Below are positions 37,400-57,653 of a stretch of DNA of 64,000 nt, one piece after another. This DNA is from Haliclystus octoradiatus (taxonomy: Eukaryota; Cnidaria; Staurozoa; Stauromedusae; Haliclystidae), in contig OU744446.1 in NCBI GenBank assembly GCA_916610825.1, positions 33,771,436 to 33,835,435 of the forward strand, read 5' to 3'. Within the stretch, counting starts at the first letter, position 1, and the number at the start of each line of letters is the position of its first letter. Made by a program: the position numbers and the translations under genes. The notes below the pieces were generated by a model that worked only from the letters and a program-made list of their open reading frames with translations, was not told the origin of the DNA and did no database searches.

Positions 37400-40300
37400 C
37401 TATTTACGTCTACCTTGAGCAATAAGTGACGCTAATGTTGTAATTGGCATCCTAGGTTCATTTCGGTGATAGGGTACAATAACAAAGCCTTTACCATTTT
37501 GATTCGGATTTTCTATCGGTTTAGAACTAATGTCTAAGGATTTCTTTCTACTTTTGTCTGGCTTTCCCTTTGGTGTAACATGTTTAGATTTACCTGTAGG
37601 TTTAGGTGGGTCCTTTCCGATTTGTGGAGGACCAGGAGGAGGTGGACTTGGTGGTGGACCAGGCGGTGGTTCATTGTTCAATGGTAAAGCAGGTGGGAGA
37701 GGTTTTGTAGGAGCAGGAAGTATAAATGGTGGCTCTTGACCAACCGATTGCACAGGGAAATGAATTGGTGTAGGAACAACAAGATAAGGGGGATCAGGCC
37801 CAATTGAAGCAACTTCAGGATGCTCATGTTGAGCTGGAGGTGGTTGATAAACAGGGCTTCCAACATTGACCTGGAGCTGAGGCTGAGCAGGAACTTGCCC
37901 AGGGATCAACCCACCTATGAGACTATTAAATGCAAGACTTTGAAGAGGATTGTTCGGAGTGCTTCCCTGTGGTCCAGATACGGGATTCATAGCTGCCTGT
38001 GTATAACTAGATGCTGGCACTGGATAGTACATAGGGTACATTTTACGTTTTGGTTTTTTCTGGTGAGCCTGATTAACTCTCTTTGCAATTGTCTCTAATA
38101 TTACTGGAAAGATAGCCTTGACGGCTGCATTGGCGATGTTTAATCTATTTTTAGGTGACATATTGACACCATCTCGCTTCATAGCACCTTCTTCGTTGCT
38201 CAATTGTTTAATAAGCTGAAGACGAAACCCCCGTTTAGTACCAATTCCTACGTTCATTTTGCATCTCTTAGAAATATTGCAGCCATCTTTTCTTTTTGTT
38301 ATATGGTCGATTGTTCTATCGATAGCTCTATATGCATAGCTATGCACTTTCGGTGTAAGCTGAATTTTCGACAACATTTTATGCAACCTATTTTCAATCT
38401 TTGCATGAGTACGACGATATTCTTTTGTATGCCTTTTGTTTCTTATATCCCTTCGTTTCCTCTTATTATGTATAATATTCTCATCATTGTTAAATGATTG
38501 GCGAAATGGAAATGGGAGATCCGCTCTCCTATCGACATTTTCACCATCATTATATGAGTCTTCATTTGGTCTGCCAAAATAGGGATGATACCTTCGTGGA
38601 ATAAAGTAAGGTCTTGGTACGTATGATTTTGGACCCGTATCACTGAATCGTTGTTGGTCTGCAAGAAAATCGTCCTTTACATCACGGAAAGGATCAAAAT
38701 TGGTGGCATCATTCTCATTCATATTAGCTTCTCCACTGCCACCATTTTCGTCGTTATCCTCTAACTCTTTACTATGTTCCTCGTCAAACCGGGGTAAGAG
38801 GTCATTGCTTAAGCGTTCATTAGTTGCGTCTGCATTAGCAAGTCCAGGAAATGCTGAATTGTATGGTACCTTGTAAACTCCATTAAAAATACCGTCTTCT
38901 CTCAACTGTGTAGCTTCGTTGTTCTCTCCGCCAGAATATTCACGTAATCCACTCCCTGATAGATCCATCAATGGTACTTTAGCTTGGACCTTTGAGTTAT
39001 CGTTGATGCTACTTCCACTCCCATTTGACGAAAACTCTAGTTCAGCATTTCCCTCTTCACTTGCATTGATATTTGGTGAGATACTGTTTGTAATCGATGT
39101 ATAATTATGTAATACCGTTCCACCAATAGTTTGTCTGGAAACTTGTTGTTGAATTTCTCTTGTGCTATCTCCGACCCGTTTTGCTTCTTTCACTATCAAA
39201 GAAGCCAACATGCTTGCTTCTTGTTCTGAGAAGTCGCCACTACCACTACCACTACCGGAGTTTATTGTGTTATCCCCTGATCCACTTCCAGAGAAATTAA
39301 TTAATGTTCTATTTAAGATTTTTTTGTTTGATGAGTTACTTGTGCTGTTTTCAGTTACATGAACAACATTGGGTCCTTTAATCTCTTTCACGTCAAGCAT
39401 TGATTTTATATCTAATCTCCTTTTTACCGCAAGCTTGCGATCAAATTCTTTAGCATCATGCATAGCCATCATGTCGTGTTTTACTGCCTCATACATCTGA
39501 TGCCGTTTATCCTCACCACTACCGCTCCAATTCATACCTTCCAATTCGTTATCTACTGGCATTGGTATTTCGTCTCTTAAGGGATCTCCTCTTGCAATAT
39601 TTGATCGTTCTTCGTCGTTATTTGTGCTGTCAATTATCATAGATGCCAGTCTGTTTTCATTGTTTTTAGATTTATTTGAATCTTGCAGGTATGGCGCGGT
39701 CTTCGTGTTCTTTGTATCAGTATACATTGCCTGTTGAGCGTTATCAGCTTCAATTTCATTTTCATTTGCCAATTTCATTGTGTTTACATCTGCCGTTTGT
39801 CCTGACGACTCCCCCTCTGAATCCATGTAGTTATTACGTATTATTTGATTGTATTGCTCTTCTGGCCGTTTCAAGTTTTGAAAGGATTTTCTGTAATTTT
39901 TTGGTATAGAAGTCCTAGGTTCCATCATATTTGGGGGTCCGTCATTTGCTGTGTAAGCGTGTTTGTTTTCTTGAACTCTCTTCATCACATTATCTAATGA
40001 ATCATGTACATTCTGTTCAAAATCATCATGTTGATGTGACATATCAAGGATTGAAGATTTCCTCAAACCGTGCCAAGAGCTGATTGGAATATTTTCCCTC
40101 TCCTCATTTGCTGGTTGATTTTCTCTTTCTGTCAATTCACTTTTATTTTCCACTTCTCTTTGGTCAGCAGTTTGGTCTTCTTCTATGTTGCTGAAATGTG
40201 GATCAAGTGCATGAGGAGACTTTTGATGAGTTTCTGTTCTAAGTCCATCGTATTTGGTATGTGATCCCTTTGATGGTAATAAGGATGACTCTACGTGCTT

Positions 40301-57653: not shown

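What the first reader, a model, noticed from the sequence alone, without database searches (positions are those of the whole stretch)
37400..57653. A ~3,376-residue PA14 protein built from elastic, helical and proteoglycan-like parts
Fifteen exons over 20 kb keep one frame from a signal peptide to a Pro-rich end. I know of no described protein that combines two Cys-modified PA14 domains, four Gly/Ala-rich tracts separated by short amphipathic helices, SGSG glycosaminoglycan-type sites and a basic tail. PA14 gives sugar-binding potential, the Gly/Ala tracts suggest elasticity, and the SGSG sites suggest attached acidic sugar chains. A structural proteoglycan is the inference.
Basis: partly seen in the sequence, partly recalled or inferred. 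Interest (0 to 1): 0.75.

Follow-up and report, generated by a model that had tools for sequence, protein, structure and literature searches.

The report
Jellyfish silk-like protein with lectin-type domains
A stalked jellyfish carries a gene for a giant, probably secreted, silk-like structural protein whose glycine-rich stretches are joined to two sugar-binding-type (PA14) domains, and a second locus on the same chromosome shares its parts, so this looks like a small, so far undescribed family of proteins for making an extracellular material.

Summary
On the minus strand, 57653-37400, 15 exons join into one 3,362-residue frame (reader: ~3,376). The 14 introns are GT-AG; 12 are phase 1 and the other two sit at the same site in both PA14 domains. 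The genome is Haliclystus octoradiatus, a stalked jellyfish: contig sizes match its genome note. PA14 ancestry holds through bridging relatives, although each copy alone scores below Pfam's cut-off. A paralogue at C1:39.06-39.08 Mb has most of the same parts in nearly the same order, including PA14 (67% over one half), the helix module, the phase-1 E8-E15 junction and the last exon's start. This supports coding and one gene; no RNA was examined. The paralogue has no PA14 between the E8-like and E15-like exons and no SGSG in the four frames checked. SGSG is enriched in the window gene, but 'proteoglycan' and 'elastic' are unproven. PA14 is a family here (39 exon matches at E<=1, 23 at E<=0.001), and ILEI-doublet genes lie near both loci. 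Best reading: a silk-like structural protein with lectin-type anchors, a new variant of a known kind. Its tissue is unknown.

The parts
37400..57653 (-). Whole gene, 15 exons, 3,362-aa predicted protein
   Evidence: exon chain and splice sites; single signal-peptide-like first exon; paralogue
57554..57653 (-). E1: start codon, signal-peptide-like segment (MNFMQIYLVLGLVVLSLAV) and KRKR
   Evidence: only stretch with 19-residue hydropathy >=1.6
55821..56384 (-). E2: segment with several N-glycosylation motifs and an acidic SGSSGSGD site (SGSG at 56071-56082)
55097..55649 (-). E3: N-terminal half of PA14-1 (from about 55401)
54314..54489 (-). E4: C-terminal half of PA14-1
52163..52279 (-). E5 (117 nt), linker
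51012..51596 (-). E6: first Gly/Ala tract
49418..49450 (-). E7: 33-nt micro-exon (uncertain)
   Evidence: phase and splice sites only
46830..49142 (-). E8: helical modules H1, H2, H3, Gly/Ala tracts 2 (about 48667-48948) and 3 (about 47599-48270), acidic/His-rich end
48469..48552 (-). H3 helical module, repeated in E12 and conserved in the paralogue (z 18)
46930..47085 (-). Acidic/His-rich segment (approximate limits), matched by a frame of the paralogue (z 7.8)
46369..46401 (-). E9: 33-nt micro-exon (uncertain)
45440..45487 (-). E10: 48-nt micro-exon (uncertain)
44605..44697 (-). E11: short segment, weakly like H1 (19/2000 shuffles)
43442..44515 (-). E12: second copy of the H3 module (44400-44483), Gly/Ala tract 4, Pro-Met run, basic segment
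42376..42700 (-). E13: N-terminal half of PA14-2
41319..41764 (-). E14: C-terminal half of PA14-2 (to about 41584) and linker
37400..41028 (-). E15: long last exon (3,629 nt): AGIAAGILSGG start shared with the paralogue, SGSG clusters, RKRR site, basic part with two Cys, Pro-rich tail
38948..39526 (-). Four SGSG clusters of E15, three in acidic surroundings
38450..38461 (-). RKRR furin-type site
   Evidence: motif only
188..5323 (+). Neighbour gene: ~800-aa low-complexity exon between a clear ILEI domain (4763-5323) and a probable first one, of which 188-358 would be the second half (first half upstream of the window at C1:33769575)
   Evidence: second ILEI. First: profile positions 1-65 at C1:33769575; 188-358 itself has no Pfam hit and only a weak likeness to the second copy (6/2000 shuffles)
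62848..63999 (-). Neighbour gene 5 (partial): Gly/His-rich protein whose end shares GPNPYE[IV]LTSD with the last exon of the PA14/silk paralogue

Best explanation
A secreted silk-like structural protein of a stalked jellyfish (Haliclystus octoradiatus). After removal of the signal peptide (hydropathy evidence only), the Gly/Ala tracts form a flexible or self-assembling bulk, the helical modules between them associate chains, and the two PA14 domains anchor the material to glycans or to partner molecules. The acidic/His-rich segment, SGSG sites and N-glycosylation motifs would make it hydrated and charged, and a furin-type site may release the basic C-terminal part. Shown here: the gene model by sequence, PA14 ancestry, an internal module repeat, conservation against a paralogue, a PA14 gene family, and ILEI-doublet genes near both silk/PA14 loci. 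Inferred: secretion, polymerisation, glycan binding, glycosaminoglycan attachment, cleavage and tissue. My best guess for the place is an epidermal secretion or matrix such as the attachment material of the pedal disc and adhesive pads; mesoglea and cuticle are about as open.
For: Single chain: with only one signal-peptide-like start, and the paralogue with the same modules on one strand and the same phase-1 E8-E15 junction. PA14: sub-cut-off Pfam hits to PA14 and GLEYA in both copies; a two-row profile finds 9 PDB sequences at E<=10, 8 of them PA14/flocculin, all weak (E 0.024-0.99 for those 8); bacterial bridge with Pfam PA14 E 9e-12; with that bridge in the profile, PDB hits at E 5.7e-7 and 0.0003-0.002 (part of this gain comes from the bacterial row itself); own-genome PA14 over cut-off at C1:5.827 Mb matches PA14-2 at E 6.6e-16. 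Silk-like criteria of McDougall 2016 (passages read): Gly >=25% in 80 residues, no other strongly hydrophobic stretch. Helix: AlphaFold helix 2-53. Lectin-plus-glycine designs are known in structural proteins (nematogalectin, sea urchin SM proteins), and a PA14 domain occurs in a cnidarian matrix protein, Hydra mega-thrombospondin (passage). Stauromedusae have glandular adhesive regions; glycan-binding domains, PF02140 among them, are prominent among Hydra basal-disc genes, and an ILEI locus near the second silk/PA14 locus carries a PF02140 (SUEL) lectin.
Against: No RNA or protein evidence could be examined. The PA14 copies do not reach Pfam's cut-off on their own (12.7 and 17.2 against 24 bits), and the half-domain model was poor (pLDDT 48.6). 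Elastin-type motifs are absent. SGSG is absent from the paralogue frames checked. Most helix segments fail or barely pass the moment test. Tissue and adhesive role rest on analogy only. The Hydra basal-disc paper holds no occurrence of PA14 in its main text.
Confidence: 0.7

Rival explanations
1. Structural proteoglycan: acidic sugar chains on the SGSG sites dominate its function.
For: Five SGSG clusters in E2+E15 against 0.04 expected, four in acidic surroundings against 0.02. The paralogue frames keep 5 looser SGxG motifs.
Against: Four paralogue frames (2,210 aa) hold no SGSG. SG sites alone do not show attachment, and the protein also carries long basic and Gly-rich parts.
Confidence: 0.2
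2. Nematocyst component (capsule wall, tubule or spine), with Gly-rich tracts as in nematogalectin, or in cnidoin (recalled).
For: The animal is a cnidarian. Gly-rich plus lectin-type domains occur in nematogalectin. An N-terminal KRKR follows the signal-like segment.
Against: Only 7 Cys in 3,362 residues and no Cys-rich domain, whereas capsule minicollagens polymerise by disulfides (abstract in a search listing). No held paper contains both PA14 and nematocyst.
Confidence: 0.15
3. Two or more adjacent genes wrongly joined by the model.
For: 12 of 14 introns are phase 1, so many wrong joins would keep the frame; intron 4 is 2 kb; no transcript data were used.
Against: Only one signal-peptide-like start. 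The paralogue joins PA14, Gly-rich, E8-like and E15-like frames on one strand with a matching junction. The H3 module sits in both E8 and E12.
Confidence: 0.08
4. PA14 lectin involved in immunity or mucus, with low-complexity tracts as passive spacers.
For: PA14 is expanded in this genome, with a small PA14 gene on C6 that starts with a signal-like segment.
Against: H3, mid and E15-start segments beside the low-complexity tracts are conserved in the paralogue (z 18, 11, 12), which passive spacers would not need.
Confidence: 0.12

Closest known systems
Silk-like structural proteins (SLSP; McDougall et al. 2016, PMC4944945, passages read)
   Same: signal peptide, no other membrane segment (both by hydropathy here), Gly-rich (>=25%) domain combined with folded domains
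   Different: PA14 does not occur in that paper's main text; this one also has repeated helical modules and is 3,362 residues long
Nematogalectin (Gly-X-Y plus galectin) and sea urchin SM proteins (Gly-rich plus C-type lectin), as described in PMC4944945
   Same: glycine-rich polymer part joined to a lectin-type domain
   Different: a different lectin fold; the tracts are GGX/GA/poly-G; not shown to lie in nematocysts or mineral
Hydra mega-thrombospondin (PMC6526912, passage read)
   Same: a large cnidarian matrix protein with a PA14 domain
   Different: cadherin and thrombospondin parts instead of Gly/Ala tracts; sequences not compared here
PA14 superfamily adhesins: yeast Flo5/Flo1, Epa1 and bacterial PA14 proteins
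   Same: domain ancestry
   Different: CxxxC at the DD site, Gly/Ala tracts between copies, an intron inside the domain
Paralogue at C1:39.06-39.08 Mb of the same genome
   Same: PA14 (62 of 92 residues identical in the N-terminal half), Gly-rich frames, acidic/His frame, H3 and mid modules, E8-E15 junction, VIVPxHR motif in the last exon
   Different: no PA14 between the E8-like and E15-like exons; no SGSG, and RKRR lies in another frame than the last; three more PA14 domains lie upstream on the same strand

Membership tests
PA14 domain superfamily | similarity to the family profile over the curated cut-off | tested here: not met
   12.7 and 17.2 bits against 24 for each copy alone; relatives that match the copies do pass: bacterial L001 45.5 bits, own-genome C1:5.827 Mb 37 bits. 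I therefore claim PA14 ancestry by transitive homology, not a direct Pfam pass
PA14 domain superfamily | profile homology to solved PA14 structures | tested here: met
   weak with the two copies alone (best E 0.024); E 5.7e-7 and 0.0003-0.002 once the bacterial relative is in the profile
PA14 domain superfamily | calcium/sugar site with adjacent Asp pair (recalled for Flo5) | tested here: inconclusive
   DD present in both window copies, in 7 of 16 joined family rows covering the site; the HMMER alignment to Flo5 places it one residue off
Silk-like structural protein (SLSP) | signal peptide and no transmembrane segment | tested here: met
   hydropathy only, not SignalP/TMHMM
Silk-like structural protein (SLSP) | >=25% Gly in an 80-residue window | tested here: met
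   maximum 77.5%, 577 windows
Proteoglycan | acidic SG/SGxG attachment motifs | tested here: met
   5 SGSG clusters, 0 of 5,000 shuffles; none in the four paralogue frames checked, which hold 5 SGxG
Proteoglycan | attached glycosaminoglycan chain | not testable with these tools
   needs biochemistry
Elastin-like elastomer | VPG/GPG-type elastic repeats (criterion recalled) | tested here: not met
   VPG 0, GPG 3
Nematocyst capsule protein of the minicollagen type | Cys-rich domains | tested here: not met
   7 Cys in total: three in PA14-1, two in PA14-2, two in the C-terminal part

The most novel reading that the evidence does not exclude
Stalked jellyfish have evolved their own silk/lectin building material: a family in which folded lectin-type domains bound chains of Gly/Ala-rich tracts and helices, encoded at two loci 5 Mb apart on one chromosome, each with an ILEI-domain doublet gene within about 100 kb, and used to build the animal's attachment or outer matrix.
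Probability: 0.3. Interest if true: 0.7.

Novelty: new variant of a known kind. Interest (0 to 1): 0.55.

Why it matters
Silk-like structural proteins arise repeatedly in animals, often by adding Gly-rich tracts to a domain that was already secreted. This is a case with PA14 as that domain, in a class of cnidarians for which I found no gene-level work on matrix or glue in my paper searches, and with a paralogue that lets one see which parts are kept (PA14-1, H3, mid, E15 start) and which come and go (PA14-2, SGSG). It gives concrete genes for testing what stalked jellyfish attach or stiffen themselves with, and a template for a glycan-anchored, Gly-rich biomaterial.

Tried and rejected
Half-domain AlphaFold model of PA14: pLDDT 48.6, not used; no fold search was run. 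Rfam and tRNA scans of the window: nothing. Viral contigs with the PA14 profile: 43 candidate stretches, none a relative. Papers: PA14 domain with ILEI 0; PA14 with nematocyst 0; PA14 domain with Cnidaria 1 paper, where the one mention is Hydra mega-thrombospondin; PA14 domain with mollus 4, none relevant by title and abstract start. The wider searches listed only part of what they found (25 of 41, 10 of 166, 25 of 579, 1 of 1, 12 of 106); no listed title or abstract start described this architecture. Kinship of the neighbouring ILEI gene's low-complexity exon with this protein: best z 4.0 among many windows, not claimed. H1 vs E11 repeat: 19/2000, weak. Moment test of helices: mostly not significant. 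The tree of PA14 domains has 4 of 15 inner branches well supported; PA14-2 is unplaced; two C2 rows share one C-terminal half through my pairing rule and are not independent, and one of them lacks the middle. Whether PA14 a-d at C1:39.07-39.09 Mb form one gene or two is open: no signal-peptide-like start was found at 39074400-39076300.

Full report
Observation. I rebuilt the gene from the minus strand. Fifteen exons between 57653 and 37400 chain into one frame of 3,362 residues with GT-AG introns; 12 of 14 introns are phase 1 and two are phase 2. The two phase-2 introns lie at the same point (DK|YP) of the two PA14 domains, which are 39% identical.

What animal. Nine large contigs of the window's genome have sizes 39.98, 38.98, 35.87, 28.99, 27.81, 26.96, 21.35, 20.73 and 16.71 Mb, equal to the nine chromosomes in the genome note of Haliclystus octoradiatus (PMC9975415, abstract and passages). 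The mitochondrial contig encodes what I read by eye as pieces of a DNA polymerase at its ends, cox1 on the opposite strand, and only two tRNA genes found by ARAGORN run with the bacterial code, which I recall as typical of medusozoan jellyfish.

PA14. Each copy alone scores below Pfam's cut-off for PA14 but hits PA14 and its relative GLEYA. A two-row profile finds nine PDB sequences at E<=10, eight of them PA14 or flocculin proteins, all weak (0.024-0.99). A Chitinophagaceae protein (L001) matches the copies and is a clear Pfam PA14 (E 9e-12). With it in the profile the PDB hits reach 5.7e-7 for a PA14 protein and 0.0003-0.002 for flocculins, partly thanks to the bacterial row itself. Within the genome, a PA14 over the cut-off at C1:5.827 Mb matches PA14-2 at E 6.6e-16.

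A family, not a singleton. PA14-2 finds 39 exon matches at E<=1 in the genome, 23 of them at E<=0.001; four are the window's own. I fetched seven of the regions that hold matches; there the PA14 halves lie in separate frames, most of them meeting at the site of the window's intron. Among joined domain rows from the window and these regions, CxxxC at the 'Cys-modified' site occurs in 15 of 16 rows that cover it, DD in 7 of 16. In a tree of 18 rows PA14-1 pairs with the copy at C1:39074133 (support 100/99); PA14-2 is unplaced.

The paralogue. At C1:39,075,107-39,062,770, minus strand, the order is: PA14 (62 of 92 residues identical in its N-terminal half), Gly-rich frames, a frame with RKRR and an acidic/His stretch (z 7.8 to the end of E8), an E8-like exon with H3 (z 18) and mid (z 11), then an E15-like last exon (start z 12) holding the VIVPxHR motif. 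The acidic/His frame precedes the E8-like exon there, whereas in the window that stretch lies at the end of E8. The E8-like exon ends in a phase-1 donor and the E15-like exon begins after a phase-1 acceptor, as in the window; the two are about 300 bases apart and no PA14 lies between. Across 246 aligned codons pS is 0.70 and pN 0.25; the blocks were chosen because they align, so the ratio is only a rough sign of purifying selection. Searches of the whole genome at E<=0.1 with H3+mid find only these two loci; the E15 start (134 aa) and the basic C-terminal domain (191 aa) find only the window, although the shorter core of the E15 start is plain in the paralogue by direct comparison. This independently supports joining E3 to E15 into one gene, and suggests that the E9-E14 stretch with PA14-2 was gained in the window copy or lost in the other. 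H3 recurs as E12a in the window gene (13/28 identical, 0 of 2,000 shuffles), which fits internal duplication.

One gene or several. Over 58400-37300 on the minus strand five ATGs had a signal-like core; the only two followed by a listed phase-1 donor are two start codons of E1. That and the paralogue argue against two genes. RNA evidence was not available. In the paralogous locus I could not decide whether the four PA14 domains belong to one gene or two.

How it may work. The glycine tracts are of GGX, GA and poly-G type; VPG is absent and GPG occurs three times, so elastin-type elasticity is not indicated, although disorder and self-assembly are plausible (inference). AlphaFold predicts a 52-residue helix for H3 (mean pLDDT 68, 78-88 in blocks over the first 30 residues), while the moment test supports only one of eight segments clearly. 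I infer chain association through helices, a flexible or self-assembling bulk, and glycan or partner anchoring through PA14. SGSG clusters exceed chance (5 against 0.04), but four paralogue frames (2,210 aa) have none and only five looser SGxG motifs, so SGSG is not a shared property of the two genes. Seven cysteines in all speak against a disulfide-linked nematocyst capsule role. For the tissue I lean towards an epidermal secretion or matrix. Stauromedusae have glandular adhesive regions on tentacle pads, anchors, peduncle and pedal disc (PMC5088631, passages), and glycan-binding domains are prominent among Hydra basal-disc genes (PMC5080974, passages). This is analogy.

Surroundings. To the left lies a plus-strand gene with a clear ILEI domain (E 1.9e-18) after an ~800-residue low-complexity exon. 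A second ILEI, whose first half is at C1:33769575 just outside the window, precedes that exon; its second half at window 188-358 is inferred (no Pfam hit; weak likeness to the other copy). About 60 kb above the second silk/PA14 locus is another ILEI doublet, with a SUEL lectin between its two copies and a highly basic repeat frame just before them. To the right, gene 5 is Gly/His-rich and its end shares GPNPYE[IV]LTSD with the paralogue's last exon. Genes that look like secreted, low-complexity proteins are therefore gathered here.

Known kinds. The protein meets the silk-like structural protein criteria (PMC4944945, passages), with hydropathy standing in for SignalP and TMHMM. That paper names nematogalectin and sea urchin SM proteins as Gly-rich proteins with lectin domains; PA14 does not occur in its main text. 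PA14 in a cnidarian matrix protein has been noted in Hydra mega-thrombospondin (PMC6526912, passage). My paper searches (open-licence PMC only, mostly seen as partial listings) showed no description of this combination. I rate it a new variant of a known kind.

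Noticed in passing
window 188-5323 (+) and C1:33769575: Probable ILEI-domain doublet gene around a long low-complexity exon; another ILEI doublet with a SUEL lectin between the copies lies at C1:39.160-39.164 Mb, near the PA14/silk paralogue. ILEI has 24 matches in this genome.
   Followed up: partly
window 60325-61767 (+): Small gene with a signal-peptide-like start (read by eye) followed by a His/Asp/Glu-rich exon; possible metal-binding secreted protein.
   Followed up: no
window 62848-63999 (-): Gly/His-rich protein ending in a GPNPYEILTSD motif and a CGCGG basic tail; the motif is shared with the last exon of the paralogue at C1:39.06 Mb.
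   Followed up: partly
C1:39099703-39096405 (-), L038: Gly/His-rich frame and an 854-residue frame with repeats of the GGPVHVGQ / HNQEGGxYG type upstream of three PA14 domains; may be one gene with the paralogue.
   Followed up: partly
C6:7.47, 8.17, 22.64-22.74 Mb: Small PA14 genes close to each other in sequence, at least one with a signal-like segment in the same frame as PA14: apparently a recent expansion.
   Followed up: no
window 8225-8620 (-), 16307-18712 (-): Fragments that look by eye like Penelope-type retroelements with a GIY-YIG end; very long ATT microsatellites at 15.6-19.5 kb and 45.5-46.1 kb.
   Followed up: no
window 26692-27564 (-): Single-exon rhodopsin-type receptor (Pfam 7tm_1, E 8.3e-10).
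   Followed up: no
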